A DNA stretch of 42,809 nucleotides from Clostridiales bacterium (lineage in GTDB: Bacteria > Bacillota > Clostridia > Oscillospirales > Oscillospiraceae): positions 1 to 42,809 of the forward strand of contig JAJBVG010000018.1 in the NCBI GenBank assembly GCA_020859945.1, given 5' to 3'. Made by a program: the position numbers and the translations under genes. Positions 3-42,809 of this stretch are shown one piece after another. The stretch's first letter is position 1. Every line of letters begins with the position of its first letter. The notes under the pieces are model-generated. The model worked only from the letters and a program-made list of their open reading frames with translations. It did not search any database and had not been told where the DNA came from.

Positions 3-1019
3 TTGGGCTACGACCGTGGGAAGGACGGAAACCTCGTTGTAAACGAAGAACAGGCAAAAGTTGTGCGGCTTATCTACAAGCTGTTCCTTGACGGCCTGAC
101 GGCATATGCTATTGCTTCGGAGCTTACTAAGAGGGAGATAAAGACTCCAACAGGAAAGAACAAATGGAATATGTCCACGGTTCAGAGCATCCTTACCAAT
201 GAAAAGTACAAGGGCGATGCCCTGCTCCAGAAAACCTACACGACTGACTTTCTGACAAAGAAAAGCAAGGTCAACGAGGGCGAAATCCCGCAATACTATG
301 TTGAGGGAAACCACGAAGCCATCATTGAGCCGAAAATTTTTGATTATGCGCAGATGGAGATGGAAAGGCGCTCCCAGAGCAGCCAGCGCTACAGCGGCGT
401 GAGCGTTTTCTCCTCTAAAATCAAATGCGGCGAATGCGGCTGCTGGTACGGCTCCAAAGTCTGGCACTCCAACGATAAATACCGCCGGGTCATTTATCAG
501 TGCAACAACAAATACAAAGGCGATAAAAAGTGCGGCACTCCGCACATTACCGAGGATGAGGTCAAAGCAGTGTTCGTCCGGGCAGTCAACATTCTGCTCT
601 GCGAGCGGGATGAACTGATTGCCAATGTGCAGACCATCATCGCCATGCTGTGCGACAGCACTGAACTGGAGAAAAGGCAGGCGGAGCTTCACAGTGAGCT
701 GGAAGTTATCGTAGAACTGACCGAGCGGTGTGTAAATGAAAATGCCCATGTTGCTCTCGACCAGGACGAGTACACAGAACGCTACAACAGTCTGGTGGAA
801 CGCTACGAAAAGACAAAAGCACAGTACGATGAAGCCACGCAGACGATTGCGGATAACGCCGCAAGGAAAAAGCAGATGGAACAGTTCATCACATCCATTG
901 AAAGCCAGCAGCCCATTACAGAATTTGACGAGGAGACTTGGACGAGCCTGGTGGATTTTGTGACAGTCTACAGCGAGAAGGACATCCGAGTGACATTCCG
1001 AGACGGCACAGAGGTTTGA
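3..1019 (+). CDS. Large serine recombinase, C-terminal part (5' end outside window)
   Basis: The reading frame is open to the left edge, so only the last 338 residues are visible and the catalytic resolvase domain with its nucleophilic serine lies upstream. Visible residues about 10-120 match the 'Recombinase' DNA-binding domain (VVRLIYKLFLDGLTAYAIA, then WNMSTVQSILTNEKYKG). A zinc ribbon follows with Cys142, Cys145, Cys167 and Cys177. A glutamate/lysine-rich coiled coil spans about 215-300, and a short beta tail (DIRVTFRDG) ends the protein. This order is typical of the large serine integrases of conjugative elements and phages, which integrate and excise DNA between attP and attB. Its position at the window edge next to a tRNA suggests it ends an integrated element. 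Family call is firm; the identity of the element is unknown. Confidence 0.9.
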   Translation: MGYDRGKDGNLVVNEEQAKVVRLIYKLFLDGLTAYAIASELTKREIKTPTGKNKWNMSTVQSILTNEKYKGDALLQKTYTTDFLTKKSKVNEGEIPQYYVEGNHEAIIEPKIFDYAQMEMERRSQSSQRYSGVSVFSSKIKCGECGCWYGSKVWHSNDKYRRVIYQCNNKYKGDKKCGTPHITEDEVKAVFVRAVNILLCERDELIANVQTIIAMLCDSTELEKRQAELHSELEVIVELTERCVNENAHVALDQDEYTERYNSLVERYEKTKAQYDEATQTIADNAARKKQMEQFITSIESQQPITEFDEETWTSLVDFVTVYSEKDIRVTFRDGTEV

Positions 1020-1342
1020 ACAGAATACGGATTTTTACGGCATCCGGCTTCGGTCGGGTGCTTTTTCTATCGTTAAATTATGCACACCCCTCATTTTGCA
1101 CCTGTTCACAATCGTTAATAGGGTGGCGTGTTCATCGTTAATGGGGTATCCGTGTTCATCGTTATTTTGTATCAATGTGCGTGTTCAGATCGACTTTATT
1201 CTAACAAACTCAATCGCCTTTTTCTATACCCTGGTCTCACATCTATTGTAAAGCTACAGCCTTAAATTTATGCTCGATGGCTTGACACCAAACTCCAAGG
1301 CATGGTACACTTTTCTAAATCCCAAAAGGAGGAATATACAAT
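1020..1342. other. Intergenic tail of recombinase with imperfect direct repeats
   Basis: No gene is seen here. Between about 1107 and 1190 the motif GTTCA-TCGTTA recurs three times (GTTCACAATCGTTAATAGGG, then GTTCATCGTTAATGGGG, then GTTCATCGTTATTTT) at a spacing of about 25 bases. Such repeats next to a recombinase gene may be binding or attachment sequences, but this is inference. A promoter for the next gene lies at 1282-1311. Confidence 0.5.
1282..1311 (+). promoter_or_regulatory. Sigma-A-type promoter of the 112-aa protein gene
   Basis: TTGACA (1282-1287) and TACACT (1306-1311) are separated by 18 bases, 32 bases upstream of the start codon at 1343. Confidence 0.5.
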
Positions 1343-1681
1343 ATGTTTGGAAACAATGACAAGAAGGCTGCTAAGGCCGATGCGAAGGCGGCGAAAGAAG
1401 CTGCCAAGGCTGAGAAGGAACGGCAAAAGCAGGATGAGCTGCTCCGCAAGTTCGGGGTGGAAGGACTCAACGACCCAAAGTCCGTGGAAATTGTCCGGGA
1501 CATCTCAGCAACGCTCTGCGGGGATGACCTTATTGAACTGGGAGCCTCACTCGGCGGTGCAAGCGAGAAAGACCTTTTGCACCAGATTTATCGGCATAAC
1601 CAGGTACAGACCCGCCAGAACTGGCTCATTATCCGGCAACTGGATCGAATCGCTACCGCGCTGGAATCTAAAGATCAGTAA
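1343..1681 (+). CDS. Small hypothetical protein with lysine/alanine-rich coiled-coil start
   Basis: A 112-residue protein preceded by a strong AAAAGGAGG ribosome site eight bases before ATG. Residues about 7-35 are an alternating Lys/Ala/Glu helix (DKKAAKADAKAAKEAAKAEK), probably a coiled coil. The rest is acidic and helical, with no signal peptide or membrane segment. I do not recognise a functional domain. It has its own promoter and a near-perfect terminator, so it is an independent unit. It sits between the recombinase and the tRNA and may be cargo of the integrated element. Function unknown. Confidence 0.75.
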   Translation: MFGNNDKKAAKADAKAAKEAAKAEKERQKQDELLRKFGVEGLNDPKSVEIVRDISATLCGDDLIELGASLGGASEKDLLHQIYRHNQVQTRQNWLIIRQLDRIATALESKDQ

Positions 1682-1702
1682 ATACGTTTAACCGAAAAGA
1701 GC

Positions 1703-1740
1703 AAAGGGCCGCATTGGGGTAAAATCCAATGCGGCCCTTT
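1703..1740 (+). terminator. Intrinsic terminator-like hairpin
   Basis: A perfect 15-bp inverted repeat (arms 1703-1717 and 1726-1740, AAAGGGCCGCATTGG and its complement) with an 8-base loop, 22 bases after the stop of the 112-aa gene. The T-tract is short. Confidence 0.75.
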
Positions 1741-1827
1741 AGACATTTTGGTGTAACTTTGGTGTAATCAAATGCAAATAAAATTCACTAAAATGACCAC
1801 ACAGAAAATGTAAATACAAAGAGAAAT

Positions 1828-1879
1828 AATAAAACGTGCTGAAAATTGAGTTTAATCACAACTTTCAGCACGTTTTATT
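1828..1879 (-). terminator. 17-bp inverted repeat abutting the tRNA 3' end
   Basis: Arms AATAAAACGTGCTGAAA (1828-1844) and its exact complement (1863-1879) enclose an 18-base loop. The right arm ends on the base that encodes the final A of the tRNA CCA tail. On the minus strand this is a plausible terminator for the tRNA. Its contact with the tRNA 3' end also fits an element boundary. Confidence 0.55.
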
Positions 1880-1954
1880 GGTACACCCGAAGGGACTCGA
1901 ACCCCCACCATTCAGAACCGGAATCTGACGCTCTATCCATTGAACTACGGGTGC
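1879..1954 (-). tRNA. tRNA-Arg (anticodon CCG)
   Basis: The reverse complement gives a 76-base cloverleaf. Acceptor arms are GCACCCG and CGGGTGT (with a G-U first pair). The anticodon stem is TCAGA/TCTGA around the loop TTCCGGT, so the anticodon is CCG. The T arm is GGGGG-TTCGAGT-CCCTT. The discriminator A and CCA are encoded in the DNA. Any protein frames across this stretch are spurious. Confidence 0.95.
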
Positions 1955-1972
1955 ATATCTCCAACAGATGTT

Positions 1973-2001
1973 ATTATAACAGCCTTCCCCCCGGTTGTAA
2001 A
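1973..2001 (-). promoter_or_regulatory. Promoter of tRNA-Arg
   Basis: On the minus strand TTTACA (1996-2001) and TATAAT (1973-1978) are separated by exactly 17 bases, 18 bases upstream of the tRNA 5' end. Confidence 0.75.
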
Positions 2002-2053
2002 CCCTTTTTTTCTGAAAAGTGGCCTGTTTTTTTCGTAAAATTTCTCCCTGCGG

Positions 2054-2082
2054 TTGTGCAATTTTCAGAAGTGTGCTACAAT
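2054..2082 (+). promoter_or_regulatory. Promoter of the Smr-domain gene
   Basis: TTGTGC (2054-2059), 17-base spacer, TACAAT (2077-2082). The start codon at 2124 follows 41 bases later. Confidence 0.6.
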
Positions 2083-2123
2083 AATTTGTTGTCTTGGAAG
2101 AAACAGGCGAGGAGGGACCCATC

Positions 2124-2471
2124 GTGAAGCAGACCATCCGTGTTATCAACCTGGAGGCGGGGATGCCCACCGTAGACCAGGCGCTCCGCCGTCTCAGCGG
2201 CGAGCTGTACACCAGCCGCCGCATGGGGTGCCGGGCAGTCAAGCTGATCCACGGCTACGGCAGCTCCGGCAAGGGCGGCAAGATACGGGTCGCCATCCGT
2301 CGGGAGCTGGGCGGGCAGAAGCTGCGGGGACAAATCAAAGACTATATCCCCGGCGAGGACTTCTCCATCTTCAACAGTGCCACCCTCCAGGCGTTTTCCT
2401 TGGCAGAGGACCTGCGGAACGACAAAGACCTGGACCGGTATAACAACGGGGTCACATTTGTGTTGCTGTGA
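2124..2471 (+). CDS. Smr-domain protein (stand-alone, MutS2 C-terminal type)
   Basis: A 115-residue protein. GTG at 2124 is chosen because GAGGAGGG lies seven bases upstream; an in-frame TTG at 2094 lacks a ribosome site. The core LIHGYGSSGKGGKIR matches the Smr signature HGxGxGxLR, and the preceding NLEAGMPTVDQALRRL is the usual lead-in helix. Smr domains bind or nick nucleic acid, and stand-alone forms are common in Firmicutes with roles in DNA processing or in ribosome-collision rescue of mRNA. Here the last motif residues are KIR rather than LR. It is monocistronic, with its own promoter and a terminator shared with the convergent aminotransferase gene. The target is unknown. Confidence 0.85.
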   Translation: MKQTIRVINLEAGMPTVDQALRRLSGELYTSRRMGCRAVKLIHGYGSSGKGGKIRVAIRRELGGQKLRGQIKDYIPGEDFSIFNSATLQAFSLAEDLRNDKDLDRYNNGVTFVLL

Positions 2472-2541
2472 ACCTGTGTTGGCGAGCGATTAGACGAATA
2501 TAAGCTGGTTTTCACGGACTGACTTACCACCAGCAAAAACA

Positions 2542-2568
2542 GGGGACCGGGTATCGTACCCGGCCCCC
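2542..2568. terminator. Bidirectional terminator between convergent genes
   Basis: GGGGACCGGGTA and TACCCGGCCCC pair around TCG with one bulged A. It lies between the Smr gene (plus) and the aminotransferase gene (minus), with A-rich sequence on the left serving as a U-tract for the minus strand. Confidence 0.7.
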
Positions 2569-2608
2569 GTTGCGTTGTTATGAAAAATACGACTGCTCAG
2601 GCGAGTTC

Positions 2609-3829
2609 TCAATCCTGATGATAAGTAGCCAGATAATCACCGATGCGGCCCAGGGCGACGGTGATTTCCTCCGGCTTGGGGAGCATGACCAGACGGAAGT
2701 GGTCCGGCTCCGGCCAGTCGAAGCCGCTGCCGGGAACAAACAGCACCTGGGTGTTGTGCAGGATGTCCATGGCGAACTCCTTGTCGTTGGTGATTTTGAA
2801 CTTCTTGGTGTCGATCTTGGGGAACAGATAGAACGCGGCGTGGTTCTTCACGTAAGTGATGCCGGGAATCTTATCCAAGGCCTTGCAGGTGGCCTCCCGC
2901 TGCTCATAGAGACGGCCGCCGGGGACCATCATGGCCTCGGTGCTCTCCGGGTCGTTGAGGGCGGCGGGGATGACCAGCTGGGTCAGGGCGTTGCCGCACA
3001 GCCGCATGGCGGCGATCTTCTGAATGGCTTCGGTGGCGGGGACGGTGAAGCTCTCCGGGCCGGTGATGACCATCCAGCCGCAGCGGAAACCGCAGACGAT
3101 GTGGGACTTGGACAGGCCGTTGAAGGTGATGACCGGCAGGTCCGGGGCCAGTTCCGCAGTGGAGCGGTGGGTGACGCCGTCCATCAGCAGGCGGTCATAA
3201 ATTTCATCGGACAGGACGAACAGGTTGTTCTCACGGGCAATCTGTGTCAGGCCCAGGATGACTTCGTCGGGATAGACCGCGCCGGTGGGGTTGTTGGGGT
3301 TGATGAGCAGCAGAGCCTTGGTCTTGGGGGTGATCTTGCTGCGAATGTCGTCCAGGTCGGGATACCAGTTGGACTTCTCGTCGCAGGTGTAGAATACCGG
3401 AGTGGCCTCGGACAGATAGACCAGGTTGGTCCACAGAGAATAACTGGGGGAGGGGACCAAAATCTCGTCGCCCACGTCAAACAGGGCGGTGGCCACCATA
3501 TTGGCTACTTCGCTGACGCCGTTGCCTACGAAAATGCGGTCCATCGACACGCCGGTCAGGTTCTTCTTGTTGGTGTGGTAGTCATAGATGGCCTGCCGCG
3601 CCTCCGGCATACCTTTCAGGTCGCAGTAACCCACAGCCTTGTCCACGTTGTCCAGCAGGGCGGAACGCAGACTGTCGGGCATACCAAAGCCGAAGGTGGC
3701 GGGGTTGCCGGTGTTCAGCTTCATGACCGGGATGCCTCTGGCGGCCATGGCGTTGGCCTCGACGAACAGCGGGCCGCGGATGTCGGAGTGGACCGGAGCC
3801 ATTCTGGCTGCAACTTTAAATTCGCTCAT
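2609..3829 (-). CDS. PLP-dependent class I aminotransferase, AlaA/AlaT-like (alanine transaminase)
   Basis: A 406-residue cytosolic enzyme. ATG at 3829 follows AAGGAGAG; longer upstream frames run through the promoter and are rejected. Fold-type I aminotransferase motifs are visible: NTGNPATFGF near the N-terminus, SPSYSLW, INPNNPTGAVYP, LSDEIYDRLL and the PLP-lysine motif FNGLSKSHIVCGFRCGWM. These match glutamate-pyruvate transaminases of the AlaA type, in which FNGLSK-x4-GFR-x-GWM is characteristic. The likely reaction is alanine + 2-oxoglutarate to pyruvate + glutamate. It is monocistronic with a consensus promoter about 120 bases upstream. Valine-pyruvate or broader specificity is possible. 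Confidence 0.88.
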   Translation of the reverse strand: MSEFKVAARMAPVHSDIRGPLFVEANAMAARGIPVMKLNTGNPATFGFGMPDSLRSALLDNVDKAVGYCDLKGMPEARQAIYDYHTNKKNLTGVSMDRIFVGNGVSEVANMVATALFDVGDEILVPSPSYSLWTNLVYLSEATPVFYTCDEKSNWYPDLDDIRSKITPKTKALLLINPNNPTGAVYPDEVILGLTQIARENNLFVLSDEIYDRLLMDGVTHRSTAELAPDLPVITFNGLSKSHIVCGFRCGWMVITGPESFTVPATEAIQKIAAMRLCGNALTQLVIPAALNDPESTEAMMVPGGRLYEQREATCKALDKIPGITYVKNHAAFYLFPKIDTKKFKITNDKEFAMDILHNTQVLFVPGSGFDWPEPDHFRLVMLPKPEEITVALGRIGDYLATYHQD

Positions 3830-4189
3830 AAAAACTCTCCTTACGATAAAATACCTACTTCTGTGAAAGAGCTGCCGCCAGTGGACAAGCCGCAGGATGC
3901 AAAAACCCTTACATTGATTTATATTATAAAGTCTGTTAAAAGAAATGTCAACCGGCAGATGCAGTTTTCCACGAAAATCAGAGAAGTTGTGGGAAAAGGA
4001 TTGGATATTTTGACGAGCAGGACGGGAGGAAGGACCAGTGGATTGCAAAGAATTTTGCCAATATAGCGCGCAGAATGATAAAGGGGCTGTTTTTTGCGGA
4101 AAATCTATGGTATAATCCTCCTATCAACAGTGTCGCTGCCAGTGAGCGGCCCACGCAAACGAAAACCATATCTGAAAGGGGCTTTCTCT
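3830..4189. other. Divergent intergenic region
   Basis: No gene is seen in these 360 bases. The region holds the leftward consensus promoter (3923-3951) and a likely rightward -10 TATAAT at 4111-4116 for the mutarotase-like gene, with only a weak -35. Nothing else is recognised. Confidence 0.5.
3923..3951 (-). promoter_or_regulatory. Promoter of the aminotransferase gene
   Basis: On the minus strand TTGACA (3946-3951), 17-base spacer, TATAAT (3923-3928): a perfect sigma-A promoter, leaving a leader of about 85 bases before ATG 3829. Confidence 0.8.
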
Positions 4190-5062
4190 ATGTCTAAACT
4201 GACCACCGGCGTCTACGAAAAATACGGCGCCACCTACGCGACCCTCACCCTGACCGACGGCGAATGTGCGCTGACCGTCACCCCCGAAAAGGGCGGCATG
4301 GCCACCTCCTTCACCAAAGGCGGCGAGGAGTACCTCTGGCTGCGGGACAAAAACTTTGAGTCCACCGACCGTCCCCGCTGCGGCATCCCCATCCTGTTCC
4401 CCAACTGCGGCAAGCCGGACGGCGGCGTTCACACCTTTGGCGGCGCGGACTACCCCATGGAGATTCACGGGTTCGCGGACCTGGTGCCCTGGCAGGTCAA
4501 GACGGCGGCGGACGACGCCATCGAGTTGACTCTGGCTCCTAACGGTCTGACCAAGTTCGTCTATCCCTTCGACTTCCTGCTGACCATGCGTTACACCCTG
4601 AACGGCGCCACCGCCGGTCTGACACTGACGGTGGAGAACACGGGTGACAAGCCGCTGCCCTTCAGCGTGGGTTTCCACCCCTACTTTGCCGCCAGCAAGT
4701 TGGAAAACGTCAGCTTTGACATCACCGCTGCCACCTGCTCAGAAAACGCCAAGGGGGAGCAGCCCGCCGCCCCCGCTGTGCTGACCCTGACCAAAAAGCC
4801 GGGCAGCGCCGATTCCATCCGCCTGCTGACCGGCGTGAAAAGCCCCATGCAGCTGACCGACGCGGGCAACGGCCACACCGTCGAAGTGGCTTTTGACGAG
4901 GCGGTGTTCACCAACGGCGTGCTGTGGCAGCAGGACGTGGAATCCTTTGTCTGCATGGAGCCGTGGAACGGCTGGGCCAACAGCGTCAACGAGGCAGGCA
5001 AGCACATTGAGCTGGCCCCCGGCGCGAGCAAGAACTTCGCCTGGACCATCACCATCGGCTGA
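4190..5062 (+). CDS. Aldose 1-epimerase (mutarotase) family protein
   Basis: A 290-residue cytosolic protein. ATG at 4190 is chosen because GAAAGGGG precedes it and the next residues begin the usual galactose-mutarotase-like fold. Visible motifs are RCGIPILFPNCGK, MEIHGFA, the conserved GFHPYFA strand with its histidine, and the C-terminal MEPWNGWANS. These are the hallmarks of the aldose-1-epimerase/LacX group, which interconverts alpha and beta anomers of free or phosphorylated hexoses. The sugar cannot be read from sequence. A rightward TATAAT lies at 4111. It is followed by spoVAC after 66 bases, but a hairpin blocks simple translational coupling (see 5073-5125). Confidence 0.85.
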   Translation: MSKLTTGVYEKYGATYATLTLTDGECALTVTPEKGGMATSFTKGGEEYLWLRDKNFESTDRPRCGIPILFPNCGKPDGGVHTFGGADYPMEIHGFADLVPWQVKTAADDAIELTLAPNGLTKFVYPFDFLLTMRYTLNGATAGLTLTVENTGDKPLPFSVGFHPYFAASKLENVSFDITAATCSENAKGEQPAAPAVLTLTKKPGSADSIRLLTGVKSPMQLTDAGNGHTVEVAFDEAVFTNGVLWQQDVESFVCMEPWNGWANSVNEAGKHIELAPGASKNFAWTITIG

Positions 5063-36721: not shown

Positions 36722-38005
36722 TTAATCGTCGTAGCGGTAAATGATCTTGCCGCCCACGATGGTGTATTTCACCTTGCCCTTCACCTGCATCCCGGCGAAG
36801 GGGGTGTTGCGGCCCTTGGAGCGGAAGTCGCCTGGGTCGATGGTCCACGCCTCGTTGGGGTCGAAGATGGTCAGGTCAGCGTCGGCCCCCATGCTCAGGC
36901 CGCCCTTGTGCAGCCGCAGGATACGGGCGGGGTTGGTGGTCATTTTGCGGATCACATCCACCAGGGTCATTCTGCCGGTGTGGTAGAGCTGGGTCAGCGT
37001 AATGGCCAAAGAGGTCTCCAGTCCCACCATGCCGCTGGGGGCTTCGGTCAGGGGCCTGGCCTTCTCCTCGGCGGAGTGGGGGGCGTGGTCGGTAACGATG
37101 CAGTCAATGGTGCCGTCCCGCAGGCCCTCCACAATGGCCTCCACGTCCTTGGTGGGACGCAGGGGCGGGTTCACCCGGGCCATGGACCCCTGGAGCAGCA
37201 CCTGCTCGTGGGTCAGGGTGAAGTATTGGGGGCAGGTCTCGCAGGTGATCTGCACCCCTCTGCGCTTGTAGCGCCGGACGATGTCCACGCTCTTGGCGGT
37301 GGAGATGTGGCAGATGTGGACGGGCTGCCCCGTCTCCTCGGCCAGCATCGCGTCCCGCATGATCATGATCTCCTCCGCAATGGCGGGGCGGCCATGGATG
37401 CCCAGTTGCCGGGAGACCCGGCCCTCGTTGACGGCGTAGTTGGCGGCCAGGGTGCTGTCCTCCTCGTGACAGAGGATGGGCAGCTTCTGGCGACCCGCCA
37501 CGATCAGCGCGTCCCGCATCAGGTTGGCGTCCATCAGCGGCACGCCATCATCGGAGAGGGCCACGGCTCCTGCGGCTTTCAGTGCCTTGAAGTCGGTGCG
37601 CTCTTCCCCTTGCAGACCTACAGTGACGGCGCCCACCGGCAGCACCTGAACGCCGCTGCCCTCCAGCTGAGCCTTCTCGCGGATGTAGCGGATGGTTTCC
37701 GGGTTATCGGCCACAGGCTTGGTGTTGGCCATGCAAGCGATGGAGGTAAAGCCCCCGTGAGCGGCGGCGGCCGTCCCGGTGATGATGTCCTCTTTATAGG
37801 TCAGGCCAGGGTCCCGCAGGTGGACGTGCATGTCCACCAGACCGGCGCAGACGGCGAAGCCTCTGGCGTCCACCACCTGGGCGTAACGGTCCTCCAGCTG
37901 GCTCCCAATGCAGGAAATGCGCCCGTCCTCGATGAGGATGTCCATTTTCCCGCCAATTCCGCTGACCGGATCGACGATTTTGCCCTGTTTGATCAGCAGC
38001 TTCAT
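36722..38005 (-). CDS. pyrC: Dihydroorotase (class I)
   Basis: A 427-residue zinc amidohydrolase that cyclises carbamoyl-aspartate to dihydroorotate. The metal motif is DMHVHLRDPG (HxH), with later ligands in CHEEDSTL and ICHISTAKS, and the substrate/metal Asp in VTDHAPHSAEEK. The length and motifs match the bacterial class I type. ATG at 38005 follows AAAGGAGTG. It is the first gene of pyrC-pyrF-pyrK-pyrD; pyrB, pyrE and carAB are not in the window. The leader has a GC-rich hairpin but no PyrR-binding consensus or T-tract. Confidence 0.96.
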   Translation of the reverse strand: MKLLIKQGKIVDPVSGIGGKMDILIEDGRISCIGSQLEDRYAQVVDARGFAVCAGLVDMHVHLRDPGLTYKEDIITGTAAAAHGGFTSIACMANTKPVADNPETIRYIREKAQLEGSGVQVLPVGAVTVGLQGEERTDFKALKAAGAVALSDDGVPLMDANLMRDALIVAGRQKLPILCHEEDSTLAANYAVNEGRVSRQLGIHGRPAIAEEIMIMRDAMLAEETGQPVHICHISTAKSVDIVRRYKRRGVQITCETCPQYFTLTHEQVLLQGSMARVNPPLRPTKDVEAIVEGLRDGTIDCIVTDHAPHSAEEKARPLTEAPSGMVGLETSLAITLTQLYHTGRMTLVDVIRKMTTNPARILRLHKGGLSMGADADLTIFDPNEAWTIDPGDFRSKGRNTPFAGMQVKGKVKYTIVGGKIIYRYDD

Positions 38006-38029: not shown

Positions 38030-38051
38030 CGCCGCACCCCATTGTGCGGCG
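38030..38051 (-). promoter_or_regulatory. Leader hairpin upstream of pyrC
   Basis: CGCCGCAC (38030-38037) and GTGCGGCG (38044-38051) pair exactly around six bases, 25 bases before pyrC ATG. It has no T-tract, so it is not an intrinsic terminator, and may stabilise or regulate the leader. Confidence 0.5.
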
Positions 38052-38075
38052 CGCTTTATCACTTTCCTACCCTCA

Positions 38076-38104
38076 ATTATACATGAAGAAGGGCCTCTTT
38101 GCAA
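38076..38104 (-). promoter_or_regulatory. Promoter of the pyr operon
   Basis: On the minus strand TTGCAA (38099-38104), 17-base spacer, TATAAT (38076-38081). Confidence 0.8.
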
Positions 38105-38244
38105 TCCGTTTTGGTCAAAAACCGCCCGCGATTTCTTTGTCAGAAAAAACCACGCTCCCGCAGGGCAAAAACCACGCGAAGCCGCGCATACTAGCTCTGC
38201 GCAGTTTTGCGCCGGATTCCTTAGCAAGTGAGGTGAGTGCAGCA

Positions 38245-38418
38245 ATGAAATATTCCAACTTCCTGCGGGGCGTGGGAATGGGGATCGCCGCAGGCGCGGT
38301 CATGGGGGCCATGGTGCCGACCCACCGGAAACGCGGCCTCAAGCGGTCCTCCGCAGCCCGTGCCATCAAAGCGGTCACGGACGTGATGGACAACCTGTCC
38401 GACGCCATGGGGCTGTAA
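38245..38418 (+). CDS. Small glycine/alanine-rich protein, YtxH-like
   Basis: A 57-residue protein starting at ATG 38245 after GTGAGGTGAG. FLRGVGMGIAAGAVMGAMVP is a short hydrophobic segment, followed by a basic helix (THRKRGLKRSSAARAIKAVT) and VMDNLSDAMGL. This layout resembles YtxH-like or small membrane-associated proteins seen in Clostridia. Function unknown. A clear terminator follows. The surrounding genes (pyr operon on the other strand, DUF4867 downstream) give no clue. Confidence 0.7.
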   Translation: MKYSNFLRGVGMGIAAGAVMGAMVPTHRKRGLKRSSAARAIKAVTDVMDNLSDAMGL

Positions 38419-38505: not shown

Positions 38506-38549
38506 GGACTTTTGCACAAAAATGATAGAAAGAATTTAGTGAAAAGTCC
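38506..38549 (+). promoter_or_regulatory. Inverted repeat upstream of the sugar-locus promoter
   Basis: GGACTTTT (38506-38513) and AAAAGTCC (38542-38549), extending imperfectly to GGACTTTTGCAC/GTGAAAAGTCC, lie 28 bases before the -35. It may be a regulator-binding site. Confidence 0.4.
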
Positions 38550-38576: not shown

Positions 38577-38605
38577 TTGACAATGGTGCAAAATAACTAT
38601 ATATT
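38577..38605 (+). promoter_or_regulatory. Promoter of the putative sulfoquinovose locus
   Basis: TTGACA (38577-38582), 17-base spacer, TATATT (38600-38605). It leaves a leader of about 205 bases before the DUF4867 start. Confidence 0.75.
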
Positions 38606-38611
38606 AAGGGA

Positions 38612-38817
38612 TAGAAACCGAGGGAGATTGGTCATATTGCCACCAGAAATGGAAAGCTCTTCGCGTTTTTTTGTAGGACAGTTGATTAATTTAATGAAAT
38701 AACCATATTTTCTGCCCGCAGACCCACGCTATGTCCTGTTTTTGACCAATCGCGTTATTTTCGCAGAGATATTGCTCTTTGCGCTATGTGAAGCGGGAGA
38801 GAAGGAGAGGAACAGAT
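38612..38817 (+). other. Long AT-rich leader before the DUF4867 gene
   Basis: GATTGGTCA (38626-38634) and its exact complement TGACCAATC (38743-38751) enclose 108 bases, which could close a structured leader or be paired operator sites. The remainder is AT-rich, unlike the surrounding GC-rich genes, and contains no gene. Confidence 0.4.
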
Positions 38818-39486
38818 ATGACCCTCGAACGGCTGAACCAGGTCAACGACGTCCCGGTGCGCTCTGTCCGGGAAAGCGCCTTTGCCACCTATGGGCGCGT
38901 GATCGACGGCTATGATTTTTCCGGCCTGACTGCGTATATGGAGCAGCAGACCCCCATCCCGGAGAACGAGAACATTTACCTGGCCTCGGTGCCGGAGATG
39001 GAGCAGGACGCTGTGGTGAGCCAGCTGCAAGCGGTGTTTTACGGCGGGATGCCCATTGAGGTGGGCTACTGCAACGGGCGCAACACCACCTATAACGGCT
39101 TCGAGTACCACAAGGGCAGCGAGATTAACGTGGCCATCACCGACCTGATGCTGGTGCTGGGCCACACCTGGCTGATCCGGGACAACACCTATCGGGTGGA
39201 GGACGCCGAGGTATTCTTCGTGGAGAAGGGGACCGCTATCGAGCTGTTCCAAACCACGCTGCATCTGTCCCCCTGCCGGGTGACGGACGAGGGCTTCAAA
39301 GCCATCGTTATCCTGCCCCGGGGAACCAACACGCCGCTGGCGGAGAAAACCGTCACCGCTGACCCGGAGAGCCGTCTGCTCCTCCAGACCAACAAGTGGG
39401 TCATCGCCCACCCGGAGCGGGAGCCGCTCATCCGCCAGGGAGCCTTCCCCGGTCTGTTGGGAGAGAACAAAGCGCTTTATTATTAA
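38818..39486 (+). CDS. DUF4867 protein, candidate sulfoquinovose isomerase
   Basis: A 222-residue cytosolic protein, ATG at 38818 after GGAGAGG. Motifs include FATYGRVIDGYDFSGL, VFYGGMPIEVGYCNGRN, GFEYHKGSEINVAITDLMLV and DAEVFFVEKGTAIELF, matching the cupin-like DUF4867 family. From memory, DUF4867 members in Firmicutes sulfo-transaldolase or sulfo-transketolase clusters act as sulfoquinovose to sulfofructose isomerases (SqvD/SftI type). The next gene being a sulfoquinovosidase-like enzyme, 47 bases downstream on the same strand, strongly supports that. His and Glu in YHKGSE are plausible metal ligands. The family call is firm, the reaction is inferred. Confidence 0.72.
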   Translation: MTLERLNQVNDVPVRSVRESAFATYGRVIDGYDFSGLTAYMEQQTPIPENENIYLASVPEMEQDAVVSQLQAVFYGGMPIEVGYCNGRNTTYNGFEYHKGSEINVAITDLMLVLGHTWLIRDNTYRVEDAEVFFVEKGTAIELFQTTLHLSPCRVTDEGFKAIVILPRGTNTPLAEKTVTADPESRLLLQTNKWVIAHPEREPLIRQGAFPGLLGENKALYY

Positions 39487-39533
39487 TACTTAATGAGGCA
39501 CACCCGTGCCCAGAGAAAAGAGAGGTCTTACTT

Positions 39534-41555
39534 ATGAAACTCATTCGCAATGGCCTGGATCTTACCCTGCAACACGGCAAAAATACCCTTTTAACCGCCA
39601 CAAAAGCCTGCCCCATGATTTATGTGGGCCAGGGCAGCGAATCCGTCGAGATGTACCGGGGCAACTTCACCATCGAGGACTATGTCACCGAGCGCCGCCC
39701 CCTGATGATATCCGATGCAGAGGATACCAAAGACGGTCTGCTGCTGAACTTTGAAAACGAATTGACCGCCCTCGTCCGGCAGGACGGGGACTGTGTTACC
39801 TTAATTTTTGAACAGAAAAACCCCGCCATCAACCGCTTTTGGTTCCGCGTTCCGGCGGAGAAGGGCGAGCACTGCTACGGCTGCGGCGAGCAGATGTCCT
39901 ATTTCGACCTGCGGGGCCGTCACTTTCCCCTGTGGACCTCCGAGCCGGGGGTGGGGCGGGACAAATCCACCTACCTGACCTGGCGGTACGACCAGGACTG
40001 CAAGGGCGGCGGCGACTACTACAACACCAATTATCCCCAGCCCACCTTTGTGTCCTCCCGGCACTACTACCTCCACGCAGACGCCTCCTCTTACGCGGAC
40101 TTCGACTTCCGCAACGAGACCTTCCACGAGCTGCAATTCTGGCAGGTCCCGGCCAGTATCCGCCTCGAGGCGGCAGAGACCTTCCCGGCGCTGCTGGAGA
40201 AGCTGACCGCTTTCCTGGGCCGTCAGCCGGAGCTGCCCGACTGGATCTACAACGGCCTCATCGTGGGCGTACAGGGAGGCAGCGTGCGTTCCTTCGGCAT
40301 CGTGGACCGGAGTCTGGCGGCGGGCATCCCCGTCTCCGGCGTGTGGTGCCAGGACTGGGCGGGGGTGCGTTACACCTCCTTCGGCAAGCGGCTCCGCTGG
40401 GATTGGCATTCCAATATGGCGCTGTATCCCAATTTGCCGGGGCAAATCGCCGCGCTGCACAAGCGGGGCATCCGCTTTCTGGGTTACATCAGCCCCTATC
40501 TCTGCACCGACGGTGACCTGTTCCCGGAGGCGGAGAAGGCGGGGGTTTTCGCCAGGCGCGCCGACGGCAGCACCTATCTGGTGGACTTCGGCGAGTTCGA
40601 CTGCGGCGTCATCGATTTGACCGACCCCAAGGCTTACGCTTGGTATAAAGACAACGTCATCAAGAAGAACATGCTGGACATTGGCATGGACGGCTATATG
40701 TGCGACTTCGGGGAGTACCTCCCCACAGACGACATCTGCCTTGCCAGCGGCAACTCCCCCATGCTGGAGCACAACCGCTGGCCGGTGCTGTGGGCCAAGT
40801 GCAACCATGACGCCCTGGTGGAGACCGGCAAGTGGGGCCAGGTGGTCTACTTCATGCGGGCTGGTGGCACCGGCAGCCAGAAGTATTGCCCCTTGCTGTG
40901 GGCGGGGGACCAGTCAGTGGACTTCACCCGGCACGACGGGCTTTGCACCGTCATCAGCGCCGCCCTCAGCGCAGGCATGAGCGGCTGCGGCCTGACCCAC
41001 AGCGACATCGGCGGATACACCTCCATGTACGAAAACGTCCGCACCAAAGAGCTGTTCCTCCGCTGGGCGGAGATGGCGGCGTTCACCGCAGTCATGCGCA
41101 CCCACGAGTGCAACCGCCCGGAGCAGAACTTCCAATATTACGACGACGAGGACTGCATGGCGCAGCTGGCCCGGCTGGTGAACATCTACACTGCCTTGGC
41201 CCCCTGCCTCAAGGCGCTGGTGGCGGAAAACGCCCAGAAGGGCCTTCCCGTTCAGCGGCCGCTGTTCCTCCACAACGAGGACGACGAGGCGTGCTACAGC
41301 AACCAGTTCGAGTACCTGTTGGGGCCGGACATCCTGGTGGCCCCAGTGTGGCAGTCCAATGTGACGGAGTGGGAGGTCTACCTGCCGGAAGGAGAGTGGC
41401 TCCACCTGTGGAGCGGCGAAGCCTACGGCAAGGGGACCCATACCGTTGCCGCGCCGCTGGGCGATACCCCCGTATTCTACAAGAAAAACTCCCCCTGGGC
41501 CGCCCTGCTGGACGGAATTCGGGAAAAGTACGGAAAATACCCCCCATACCTCTGA
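39534..41555 (+). CDS. yihQ: GH31 sulfoquinovosidase (YihQ-like)
   Basis: A 673-residue glycosidase without signal peptide. ATG at 39534 follows AGAGAGG. The GH31 barrel carries the nucleophile Asp391 in GYMCDFGEYLPTD and the acid/base Asp459 in LLWAGDQSVDF. The sulfonate-binding signature of E. coli YihQ is conserved: Gln273 in WCQDWAG, Arg286 and Trp289 in GKRLRWDW, and Tyr495 in HSDIGGYTS. MRAGGTGSQKY and EDDEACYSNQFEYLLGPDIL also align with YihQ as I recall it. It would release sulfoquinovose from sulfoquinovosyl glycerol or related sulfolipid fragments. Ordinary GH31 alpha-glucosidases lack this Arg-x2-Trp pair, so the specificity is well supported. Confidence 0.88.
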   Translation: MKLIRNGLDLTLQHGKNTLLTATKACPMIYVGQGSESVEMYRGNFTIEDYVTERRPLMISDAEDTKDGLLLNFENELTALVRQDGDCVTLIFEQKNPAINRFWFRVPAEKGEHCYGCGEQMSYFDLRGRHFPLWTSEPGVGRDKSTYLTWRYDQDCKGGGDYYNTNYPQPTFVSSRHYYLHADASSYADFDFRNETFHELQFWQVPASIRLEAAETFPALLEKLTAFLGRQPELPDWIYNGLIVGVQGGSVRSFGIVDRSLAAGIPVSGVWCQDWAGVRYTSFGKRLRWDWHSNMALYPNLPGQIAALHKRGIRFLGYISPYLCTDGDLFPEAEKAGVFARRADGSTYLVDFGEFDCGVIDLTDPKAYAWYKDNVIKKNMLDIGMDGYMCDFGEYLPTDDICLASGNSPMLEHNRWPVLWAKCNHDALVETGKWGQVVYFMRAGGTGSQKYCPLLWAGDQSVDFTRHDGLCTVISAALSAGMSGCGLTHSDIGGYTSMYENVRTKELFLRWAEMAAFTAVMRTHECNRPEQNFQYYDDEDCMAQLARLVNIYTALAPCLKALVAENAQKGLPVQRPLFLHNEDDEACYSNQFEYLLGPDILVAPVWQSNVTEWEVYLPEGEWLHLWSGEAYGKGTHTVAAPLGDTPVFYKKNSPWAALLDGIREKYGKYPPYL

Positions 41556-41818
41556 AAACCCTCTGACCCTGTTCTTTATGGCGGGGAGCTCCCTTCCCGC
41601 CGGAGAAATACGCCAGACAACACCGCGCAAGGAACGCAGCGTCGTTTCACCGGAGATTTTGTCAGCCGCTGGACGCAAGTGCCTGAAATCCCTCACGGGG
41701 ATATGCTCCCTGCTTCAGACTTTTCGTCCCGCGCCGCCGGAACGCTTCGTGTGGGCTGCCGCCGCCGAAAGGCGAGGTGTTGTCACCCACAATTCATTTT
41801 ATTTATGGAGGTAAAAAA
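41556..41818 (+). other. Intergenic region before the solute-binding lipoprotein
   Basis: These 263 bases hold no gene. A short hairpin GGCGGG-AGCTCCCT-CCCGCC (about 41580-41600) and a GTGGG...CCCAC hairpin with an inner GCCGCCGCCGAAAGGCGAGG (about 41752-41790) are visible. No strong promoter is seen, so the lipoprotein may be read from the upstream promoter. Confidence 0.45.
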
Positions 41819-42809
41819 ATGAAGAAACTACTCGCCCTGATCATGGCCCTGGCTATGGTCCTGTCTCTGGCGGCCTGCGGCTCTTCCAGCTCCAGCTCCA
41901 GCGACACCACCACCGACACATCCACCGCTGCCGCAGACGAAGAGGAAGAAACCGTCTCCAACGGCGGCACCACCGTCACCATCATCTGCGGTTACGGCAC
42001 CGGCGGCACTGCCGATTTGGTTGCCCGTAAATACGCGCAGGTGGCCAACACCATCCAGTCTGATTACAACTTCATCGTCTCCAACGTCACCGGCGGCGAC
42101 GGCTTTGCCGCTGCGACTCAGTTTGCCGATGAGGACGCCGACACCATGGACCTGCTGGTCTACGGCTATGGCCTGATTTACCGCGCTGACCTGGGCACCA
42201 CCTATGGCACCGAGGAAGTGGACTTCGACCGCGCCAGCTTCACTCCCGTTGGCACCATTGATGACCGTACCTGGATCCTCTACACCACGCCCGACCAGAC
42301 CCTGGAGAGCATCCTGGAGAAAGCCCAGACCGAGGGTATCAAGATGTCCGGCGGCAACCCCCTGTCCGACTGCCACCTGTGCCTCGGTTCCCTGCTGGCC
42401 CAGATGGGCGGCAAGGTCACTGTCGTCTCCGGTTATGACGGCGGCGCTGAGCAGAAGAAGGGCCTGACTGACGGCGAAGTTGACGTGTTCGTCGGCACCA
42501 CCCAGGCCGCGCAGGACGAGGTCGAGGCCGGTACTCTGATCCCCATCTTGGCCTTCTCTGACACCGAGTTCACTGGCTTCGTGGACGAAAACGGCGACGC
42601 CATCACCGTTCCCACCGTGGCTGGCGACACCAAGGCCGAAGCGCTGGACGCCAGCATCGACTTCTCCAGCTCCATCCTGCCCGCCGGCGGCACCCTGGCC
42701 GTCCACACCGGCTGCGACGAAGCGTTCTATGAGGACATGACCGAGATCATGACCAACGTCTGGGCCGAGGCCGACTACTATGAGTGGATCGACTCCGTCC
42801 TGCTGAACA
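41819..42809 (+). CDS. TctC-like (tripartite tricarboxylate transporter) solute-binding lipoprotein, 3' end outside window
   Basis: 330 residues are visible; the frame is open at the right edge. The N-terminus is a lipoprotein signal MKKLLALIMALAMVLSLAAC with Cys20 lipidated, then a Ser/Thr-rich linker (about 22-50). TVTIICGYGTGGTADLVARK resembles the TctC P-loop-like opening, followed by YNFIVSNVTGGDGFAA and the ISPx-type middle DVFVGTTQAAQDEVEAGTLI. Such proteins bind small acidic ligands and feed a TctA/TctB membrane pair, which would lie past the edge. RBS is GGAGG eight bases before ATG. Its placement suggests a sulfoquinovose or sulfonate ligand, which is inference. TctC itself is well supported. 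Confidence 0.8.
   Translation, partial: MKKLLALIMALAMVLSLAACGSSSSSSSDTTTDTSTAAADEEEETVSNGGTTVTIICGYGTGGTADLVARKYAQVANTIQSDYNFIVSNVTGGDGFAAATQFADEDADTMDLLVYGYGLIYRADLGTTYGTEEVDFDRASFTPVGTIDDRTWILYTTPDQTLESILEKAQTEGIKMSGGNPLSDCHLCLGSLLAQMGGKVTVVSGYDGGAEQKKGLTDGEVDVFVGTTQAAQDEVEAGTLIPILAFSDTEFTGFVDENGDAITVPTVAGDTKAEALDASIDFSSSILPAGGTLAVHTGCDEAFYEDMTEIMTNVWAEADYYEWIDSVLLN

What the first reader, a model, noticed from the sequence alone, without database searches (positions are those of the whole stretch)
38577..42809. Start of a sulfoquinovose utilisation locus in a spore-forming anaerobe
The sequence shows a GH31 enzyme with the YihQ sulfonate-recognition residues (Gln273, Arg286, Trp289, Tyr495) next to a DUF4867 gene and a solute-binding lipoprotein, behind one TTGACA/TATATT promoter. 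Known biology: YihQ-type enzymes free sulfoquinovose from plant sulfolipid, and DUF4867 proteins have been linked to sulfoquinovose isomerisation in Firmicutes sulfoglycolysis. Inference: this gut-type Clostridium degrades sulfolipid sugar to DHPS or sulfolactate, feeding sulfonate-respiring neighbours.
Basis: partly seen in the sequence, partly recalled or inferred. Interest (0 to 1): 0.78.

Follow-up and report, generated by a model that had tools for sequence, protein, structure and literature searches.

The report
Sulfoquinovose operon with unusual importer
A gut-type Clostridia genome carries genes to take up and break down sulfoquinovose, the sulfur-containing sugar of green plants, through a route that should release the two-carbon sulfonate isethionate rather than the three-carbon products first guessed, and it also carries an enzyme that may break isethionate down further.

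Summary
In detail: 38577-42809 has a TTGACA-17-TATATT promoter, a DUF4867 gene, a YihQ-type GH31 with all named residues, and a solute-binding lipoprotein cut off by the contig end. The lipoprotein is a TctC-type (tripartite tricarboxylate transporter, TTT) receptor. Two relatives, and the next contig, complete the operon: DUF4867-SQase-TctC-TctB-TctA-SftI-like sulfoquinovose isomerase. No C3-sulfonate enzyme was found near, and the genome shows no TAL_FSA transaldolase. A second locus on another contig (about 67 kb away in relative G013) encodes exporter-SqwI-SqwG-SqwH-SqwF, the sulfo-transketolase pathway, whose product is isethionate. Isomerase and SqwH occur in the same 5 of 32 same-genus genomes; in one of these, and in other Oscillospiraceae, the two loci adjoin. 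So the sulfoquinovose reading stands, the product (DHPS or sulfolactate) does not. Two parts look new: the TTT importer, for which I found no report in the held library, and a glycyl radical enzyme of the isethionate sulfite-lyase/HpsG type in three of the genomes, behind a near-identical TctA in two. Its ten checked active-site residues equal those of IslA. That raises the untested possibility that one fermenter carries sulfoquinovose all the way to sulfite.

The parts
38506..38549 (.). inverted repeat GGACTTTTGCAC ... GTGAAAAGTCC just upstream of the -35 box; candidate operator
   Evidence: present in three same-genus relatives; function inferred only
38577..38605 (+). sigma-70-type promoter TTGACA-17-TATATT
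   Evidence: (11 of 12), unchanged in 3 of 3 relatives aligned
38818..39486 (+). DUF4867 cupin (SftX/SqvB-like); metal ligands E96, H98, E102, H149 kept
   Evidence: PF16161; alignment to 9gyy; ligands from PMC11968277
39534..41555 (+). GH31 sulfoquinovosidase (YihQ type), nucleophile D391, acid/base D459, sulfonate residues Q273, R286, W289, Y495
41819..42809 (+). TctC-type solute-binding lipoprotein of a tripartite tricarboxylate transporter, cut off by the contig end (330 residues present)
   Evidence: TctB, TctA and the isomerase lie on contig C39 (L091:198-3763), gap about 84 bases judged from G013

Best explanation
This is the uptake and entry operon of a split sulfo-transketolase pathway. 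The GH31 frees sulfoquinovose from sulfolipid head groups such as sulfoquinovosyl glycerol. The lipoprotein TctC and the membrane proteins TctB and TctA bring the sugar or its glycoside in (inferred). DUF4867 probably helps to open or mutarotate the sugar ring (proposed in print, activity not detected). The SftI-like isomerase encoded at the operon's end makes sulfofructose. A second operon elsewhere in the genome (EamA-type exporter, SqwI, SqwG, SqwH, SqwF) moves two C2 units to glyceraldehyde 3-phosphate, giving two xylulose 5-phosphate and sulfoacetaldehyde, which is reduced to isethionate and exported. Shown by sequence: gene content, order, family membership, co-occurrence. Inferred: substrates, direction of transport, flux.
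For: SQase identity. Complete operon DUF4867-SQase-TctC-TctB-TctA-isomerase on single contigs in G013 and G015 and TctB-TctA-isomerase in the own genome on C39. The isomerase's only NCBIfam match is sulfoquinovose isomerase SftI NF048012, 410 bits. Second locus in the own genome on C59: EamA, RpiB/LacAB, Transketolase_N, Transket_pyr plus C, Fe-ADH; the two transketolase subunits and the ADH are 79-88% identical to those beside the sulfoquinovose genes in the rabbit-gut MAG L042. With strict limits, isomerase and SqwH occur in the same 5 of 32 same-genus genomes; in G023 they are neighbours in one locus with TctCBA and an SQase at the contig end. In 12 of the 15 family genomes with an isomerase hit over 500 bits (300 searched), a transketolase matching the SqwH query lies within about 3 kb. 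No TAL_FSA in the own genome, while 10 of 14 control genomes ring. The sulfo-TK route to isethionate by Oscillospiraceae and Caproiciproducens is published (PMC13219744, passages).
Against: No experiment. The link of C6 to C39 crosses a gap of about 84 bases and rests on synteny; a partial second TctA on C10 makes this repeat ambiguous. The two loci lie on different contigs in the own genome. The isomerase scores under its model's curated cut-off (410 against 700) and has no Pfam hit. The SqwF candidate matches the SarD sulfoacetaldehyde reductase model (208 bits, cut-off 700) only as one of 16 Fe-ADH-type models and not best. The transketolase pair groups with pairs from other settings rather than with the Faecalispora-type pair (99/97 support), though one clade of both sulfoquinovose-linked types is not rejected (AU p 0.21). 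G023 gave no DUF4867 match. Four of the five genomes with both loci are close relatives, so the co-occurrence is few events.
Confidence: 0.83

Rival explanations
1. Sulfo-transaldolase (or sulfo-EMP) pathway ending in DHPS or sulfolactate.
For: DUF4867, SQase, TctCBA and isomerase are found together with a transaldolase in 9 of the 15 TctCBA loci, all 9 also with a sulfolactaldehyde reductase-type gene.
Against: No TAL_FSA match in the own genome, which is 99.5% complete; no relative of the C. clostridioforme reductase in 4 of 4 genomes searched (which warns that an empty answer has no positive control); a complete set of sulfo-TK genes is present instead. A reductase-type frame (44% over 168 aa) about 15 kb from the pathway genes in G023 stands beside a glucarate-dehydratase-like frame (named by eye) and is more likely of that pathway. 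Sulfo-EMP kinase and aldolase were not searched for.
Confidence: 0.04
2. The TctCBA transporter does not carry sulfoquinovose but a short sulfonate (isethionate or similar), or serves both, and sulfoquinovose enters by another system.
For: A TctC C-terminal part 96% identical (171 of 178 residues, against G013) lies with TctB and TctA directly upstream of an IslA-like glycyl radical enzyme in G019, and a TctA 3' part 98.5% identical in DNA does so in the own genome. TTT SlcHFG is a putative sulfolactate importer (PMC10507020, passages).
Against: Among 51 isomerase loci TctCBA occurs in 15 and the GPH-type transporter in 17, never together (chance 6e-4, not corrected for relatedness; some loci are short), as if one replaces the other; all 15 have the SQase.
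Confidence: 0.25
3. The C59 transketolase locus is an ordinary pentose or housekeeping set, unrelated to sulfoquinovose.
For: Its transketolase pair groups with pairs from non-sulfoquinovose settings, of which three of the six whose neighbours I looked at lie beside a glycyl-tRNA-synthetase-like frame (named by eye); RpiB and Fe-ADH are common families.
Against: The same five genes lie directly beside the sulfoquinovose genes in L042 and G023, and in L043 beside TctA and the isomerase; presence and absence match the isomerase in 32 of 32 genus genomes; the own genome has other transketolase pairs.
Confidence: 0.07
4. The GH31 acts on another 6-sulfonated or acidic sugar glycoside, and the operon serves that substrate.
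For: Only sequence supports the substrate; the rare sulfosugar sulfofucose exists (PMC12421959, start of abstract in the listing).
Against: All sulfonate and catalytic residues as in YihQ and an SftI-type isomerase.
Confidence: 0.05

Closest known systems
Sulfo-transketolase pathway (SqvB, SqvD/SftI, SqwGH, SqwI, SqwF, SqwE) of Clostridium sp. MSTE9, Faecalicatena and rumen Oscillospiraceae (PMC9594981, PMC11659671, PMC13219744; passages read)
   Same: SQase, DUF4867, isomerase, split transketolase, RpiB-type isomerase, Fe-ADH, a drug/metabolite (EamA-type) permease as exporter candidate
   Different: Genes split over two distant loci in the own genome and three relatives; importer of the TTT family, where PMC11659671 describes an ABC importer; transketolase pair of a clade separate from that of Faecalispora
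Sulfo-transaldolase clusters with TctCBA, for example Clostridium clostridioforme AGR2157 (L090), C. transplantifaecale (L044), Oribacterium (L047, L050, L089) and C. aminophilum (L048, L084); gene maps
   Same: DUF4867-SQase-(TauE)-TctCBA-isomerase core in the same order
   Different: They have SftT-type transaldolase and a sulfolactaldehyde reductase-type gene upstream; neither was found in this genome
SlcHFG tripartite tricarboxylate transporter, putative sulfolactate importer (PMC10507020, passages)
   Same: TTT system assigned to a sulfonate
   Different: Substrate there is a C3 sulfonate; here a C6 sulfosugar is inferred
Isethionate sulfite-lyase IslA/IslB of Bilophila wadsworthia (7kq3; PMC8473560, passages)
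   Same: Glycyl radical enzyme of the second TctA locus has all ten checked active-site residues and 63% identity
   Different: Found here in a genome that also encodes the isethionate-producing pathway, next to a TctA copy and a ROK regulator; sulfite reductase and microcompartment genes were not searched for

Membership tests
GH31 sulfoquinovosidase (YihQ) | matches YihQ, not other GH31 enzymes | tested here: met
   PRK10426 934 bits over cut-off 553; YihQ-type chains 772-1034 bits against 153 for the next GH31; no tree was built
GH31 sulfoquinovosidase (YihQ) | sulfonate-recognition and catalytic residues | tested here: met
   Q273, R286, W289, Y495, D391, D459
GH31 sulfoquinovosidase (YihQ) | hydrolyses sulfoquinovosides | not testable with these tools
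   needs an enzyme assay
DUF4867 (SftX/SqvB) | Pfam match and 2His-2Glu metal site | tested here: met
   E96, H98, E102, H149 from the alignment
SftI/SqvD sulfoquinovose isomerase | NCBIfam NF048012 above curated cut-off | tested here: inconclusive
   only match of that library, E 9e-123, but 410 bits against 700; no Pfam hit, Fucose_iso_C included
Tripartite tricarboxylate transporter (TTT) | TctC, TctB and TctA in one operon | tested here: met
   TctB PF07331 and TctA PF01970 in G013; TctC related to TTT receptors; own TctB and TctA on C39, one gap of about 84 bases
Sulfo-transketolase pathway | SqwGH, SqwI, SqwF with isomerase and SQase in one genome | tested here: met
   two loci; by family and by identity to L042, not by assay
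Sulfo-transketolase pathway | transketolase pair in one clade with a pair from a published sulfo-TK organism | tested here: inconclusive
   two clades; single clade not rejected, AU p 0.21; Faecalispora sporosphaeroides used as anchor (named among the DUF4867 sulfoglycolytic examples in PMC11968277); the MSTE9 pair was not on hand
Sulfo-transaldolase pathway | SftT transaldolase (TAL_FSA family) | tested here: not met
   no PF00923 match in the own genome, 10 of 14 control genomes ring
Isethionate sulfite-lyase IslA (second locus) | ten active-site residues of B. wadsworthia IslA | tested here: met
   10 of 10, while 6lon differs at 192 and 682
Isethionate sulfite-lyase IslA (second locus) | falls in the IslA and not the HpsG group | tested here: inconclusive
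   64% and 63% identity to IslA chains, 61% to 6lon; of 148 separating columns 72 as IslA, 29 as 6lon, 47 as neither; NF048011 does not separate them

The most novel reading that the evidence does not exclude
One fermenting Oscillospiraceae lineage carries the whole anaerobic route from sulfoquinovose to sulfite: sulfo-transketolase to isethionate, then an IslA-type glycyl radical enzyme to acetaldehyde and sulfite. Uptake of both sulfonates would be by near-identical TTT transporters, so that the usual two-species cross-feeding step is folded into one cell.
Probability: 0.3. Interest if true: 0.75.

Novelty: new variant of a known kind. Interest (0 to 1): 0.52.

Why it matters
Sulfoquinovose is a major dietary sulfonate, and its gut turnover is a source of hydrogen sulfide. 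Naming isethionate, not DHPS, as the product changes which neighbours can use it (IslA carriers rather than HpsG carriers). The split gene layout means that a cluster-based screen that demands pathway genes within 15 kb would miss such degraders. A TTT importer for a sulfosugar would add a transporter class that I did not find for sulfoquinovose in the papers searched, and binding assays can test it directly. The glycyl radical operon makes it testable whether a single fermenter releases sulfite from plant sulfolipid.

Tried and rejected
Rejected: the C94 DUF4867 locus of the own genome as part of the pathway; it sits with a Fucose_iso_C isomerase, an FGGY kinase and ABC-type sugar transporter frames (named by eye), the common non-sulfo setting of DUF4867 in PMC11968277. 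Rejected as evidence: the NCBIfam HpsG name of the glycyl radical enzyme, because an IslA control scores as high. Rejected: Gemmiger L085 as an isomerase plus glycyl radical enzyme locus; the frame runs from one gene into the other as in a misjoin. Rejected: a reductase-type frame near the G023 locus as sulfolactaldehyde reductase, since its neighbour looks like glucarate dehydratase. Plasmid search with the GH31: 203 records, all under 60% identity, best 56.5%; it led nowhere. Weak and left open: a shared AAATTCTTT element upstream of both own loci and of the EamA operon in G023; it was absent from the other sulfoquinovose-locus spacers tested except for one-mismatch forms in L090, and the window holds 2 exact copies in all. 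Independent recruitment of the transketolase pair: suggested by the tree, not established.

Paper searches behind the statement that no TTT importer for sulfoquinovose was found in print: one paper each, PMC10507020, about taurine and sulfolactate; 46 papers, 20 listed, none of the 20 holding the word sulfoquinovose; none; 18 of 18 listed by title and start of abstract. Most subscription papers are not held; the original sulfo-TK paper was not looked up. For sulfoquinovose degradation and isethionate lyase in one genome: searches (5 papers; 25 papers, 20 listed), listings and starts of abstracts, with passages of PMC11659671, PMC13219744, PMC8397734 and PMC8473560.
Full report
What is in the window. 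The window is the whole contig C6 of genome G000 (2.67 Mb, 97 contigs, 99.5% complete), and the contig ends at 42809. Reading rightward from 38577 there is a promoter TTGACA-17-TATATT (11 of 12 matches), then DUF4867 at 38818-39486, a GH31 enzyme at 39534-41555, and a lipoprotein from 41819 that runs off the contig. Upstream lie opposite-strand genes (the frame at 36722-38005 reads like a dihydroorotase, named by eye) and a small plus-strand frame (38044-38418) followed by a hairpin with a T run (by eye), so the operon most likely begins at 38577.

The GH31. It matches the YihQ model PRK10426 with 934 bits (cut-off 553) and six YihQ-type solved chains with 772-1034 bits, against 153 for the best other GH31. 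That these YihQ residues bind the sulfonate is recalled; PMC11968277 (passages) names Asp405 as catalytic and speaks of highly conserved sulfonate-recognition residues. I built no GH31 tree.

DUF4867. The match is strong, and the four metal ligands of the B. megaterium structure (Glu97, His99, Glu103, His150; PMC11968277, passages) are E96, H98, E102 and H149 here (alignment). The same paper found no mutarotase, binding or kinase activity; ring opening or mutarotation remains a proposal, shared by PMC9594981 (passages). G023, which has the rest, gave no DUF4867 match, though its contig ends inside the SQase, where DUF4867 would follow.

Completing the operon. Relatives of the same genus carry the whole operon on one contig: G013 (L024) and G015 (L026) read DUF4867, SQase, TctC, TctB, TctA, then a 446-residue protein, then genes of other kinds. 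TctB and TctA are confirmed by Pfam; TctC itself has no Pfam hit but is related to receptors of TTT systems (5oei, 8hkb, 7ndr; E 5e-6 to 3e-4). The 446-residue protein has no Pfam match; its only NCBIfam match is sulfoquinovose isomerase SftI, 410 bits, under the model's cut-off of 700. In the window's own genome the isomerase lies on contig C39 behind TctB and TctA. Measured on G013, the C6 end and the C39 start are about 84 bases apart.

Where sulfofructose is cut. Gene maps of the 51 named loci found by the isomerase show two main settings: with a transaldolase and a sulfolactaldehyde reductase-type gene (sulfo-TAL), or with a split transketolase, RpiB-type isomerase and Fe-ADH (sulfo-TK); a few have both or, on short contigs, neither. 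The own genome has no TAL_FSA match, while 10 of 14 control genomes ring, and no relative of the reductase was found in 4 of 4 genomes searched (which itself warns that it has no positive control). It does have, on contig C59, a five-gene locus EamA, RpiB, Transketolase_N, Transket_pyr plus C, Fe-ADH, with the transketolase subunits 88% and 85% and the Fe-ADH 79% identical to those beside the sulfoquinovose genes of the rabbit-gut MAG L042. In G013 both loci lie on one 178-kb contig: the isomerase ends at 80.5 kb and the Fe-ADH starts at 148.0 kb. The stretches in between (80.5-140 kb) hold none of the pathway families searched.

Co-occurrence. With strict limits, SqwH is found in 5 of 32 same-genus genomes and the isomerase in the same 5 (G000, G013, G015, G019, G023); 1 in about 201,000 by plain chance, but four of the five are near relatives, so the events are few. 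In G023 the two halves are neighbours: EamA-RpiB-TKn-TKc-FeADH facing ROK-isomerase-TctA-TctB-TctC, with the SQase next at the contig end. The same layout is seen in L042. Of 300 family genomes, 15 have an isomerase hit over 500 bits; in 12 of the 15 a transketolase matching SqwH lies within about 3 kb, in G000 it is on another contig, and G035 and G159 had none under the limit of that search. The split is thus most simply a derived state of the window's close relatives (inferred).

The transketolase tree. A tree of 34 concatenated subunit pairs puts the pair of this lineage (9 rows) and the pair of Faecalispora, Lachnospiraceae and other loci (10 rows) in two separate clades. Twelve pairs from non-sulfoquinovose settings group with the former (99/97); of the six whose neighbours I looked at, three lie beside a glycyl-tRNA-synthetase-like frame (by eye). 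One clade for both sulfoquinovose-linked types is not rejected (AU p 0.21). Independent recruitment is therefore possible, not shown.

The importer. Among the 51 loci, TctCBA is found in 15 and a GPH-type transporter in 17, never both (chance 6e-4, not corrected for relatedness). All 15 have the SQase, 9 have the transaldolase, 3 the transketolase, and 3 neither on the stretch held (two of these are the window's relatives, the third is cut off). This supports TctCBA as the sugar's importer. Searches of the held library found no paper that names a TTT importer for sulfoquinovose (with the limits told under Tried and rejected); the nearest is SlcHFG, a putative sulfolactate TTT importer (PMC10507020, passages). 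PMC11659671 (passages) describes ABC import and a drug/metabolite permease as exporter candidate.

A second TctA locus. Looking for the ROK regulator missing from the split locus led to contig C10: a TctA 3' part (98.5% identical in DNA over 908 bases, spacer included, to C39), a glycyl radical enzyme, its radical-SAM activase and a ROK regulator. G019 has TctC (C-terminal part)-TctB-TctA-enzyme-activase-ROK on one contig; G015 has enzyme, activase and the start of ROK behind other genes; G013 shows only a ROK remnant in the stretch held. In the 154 fetched loci the enzyme occurs only in G000, G015 and G019, apart from a 32% match in the Gemmiger misjoin; further genomes could not be searched. 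The enzyme scores 1494 bits with the HpsG model, but control chains of IslA (7kq3, 1488) and 6lon (1510) score alike, so the name decides nothing. It is 63% and 64% identical to two IslA-type chains and 61% to 6lon. All ten IslA residues mutated in PMC8473560 (passages) are kept, whereas 6lon has L and I at 192 and 682. Where the two IslA chains agree and 6lon differs (148 columns), it follows IslA at 72, 6lon at 29 and neither at 47. That 5ymr is an IslA and 6lon an HpsG is recalled; the 61% identity of 6lon to B. wadsworthia IslA fits the 60.6% printed for HpsG in PMC8397734. Isethionate lyase is the most likely function, unproven. Against two full transporters: a DNA search of the own genome with the operon found no second TctC, only short matches in the signal-peptide region. 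Two full copies with one collapsed in assembly, a partial copy, or a strain mixture cannot be told apart.

How it most likely works. Sulfolipid head groups are bound and imported by TctCBA, the GH31 frees sulfoquinovose (no signal peptide seen by eye, so inside the cell; inferred), DUF4867 may open the ring, the isomerase gives sulfofructose, SqwGH with SqwI yields two xylulose 5-phosphate and sulfoacetaldehyde, SqwF makes isethionate, and EamA exports it. Reaction steps are those published for sulfo-TK (PMC9594981, PMC12890257, PMC11659671; passages). In the three genomes with the glycyl radical enzyme, isethionate could be taken back or kept and cleaved to acetaldehyde and sulfite.

Verdict. 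The sulfoquinovose locus is real. The product is most likely isethionate. It is a new variant of a known kind through its TTT importer and its split layout, with an open and more interesting question about the glycyl radical enzyme.

Noticed in passing
L145:140-5963 (G000:C10), L149 (G019:C42), L150 (G015:C164): Glycyl radical enzyme-activase-ROK operon of the IslA/HpsG type in the window's genome and two relatives; in G000 and G019 it stands behind a TctA nearly identical to that of the sulfoquinovose operon.
   Followed up: partly
L012 (G000:C94) 221-4274: Second DUF4867 gene beside a Fucose_iso_C isomerase, an FGGY kinase and ABC sugar transporter-like frames: the non-sulfo ketose setting of DUF4867.
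   Followed up: partly
window 38506-38549 and L112 about 116 bases upstream of EamA (G000:C59): Inverted repeat upstream of the window's promoter, and an AAATTCTTT element shared (in opposite orientation) by the promoter regions of both own loci and the EamA operon of G023; possible common regulator site, weak.
   Followed up: partly
tree; L118-L127, L136, L137: Split transketolase pairs from non-sulfoquinovose settings in the family are closer to this lineage's SqwGH than the Faecalispora-type pair is.
   Followed up: partly
G013:C53 (L151:8829) and G019:C111: A third, more distant DUF4867 gene (about 173 bits with PF16161) in two of the relatives.
   Followed up: no
L085:446-2342 (Gemmiger formicilis An723): Frame of a glycyl radical enzyme runs into the tail of an SftI-like isomerase, probably a misassembly.
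   Followed up: partly
window 63-1019 and L091:5382-8799: Open frames at the left edge of the window and downstream of the own isomerase read like serine recombinases (named by eye only).
   Followed up: no
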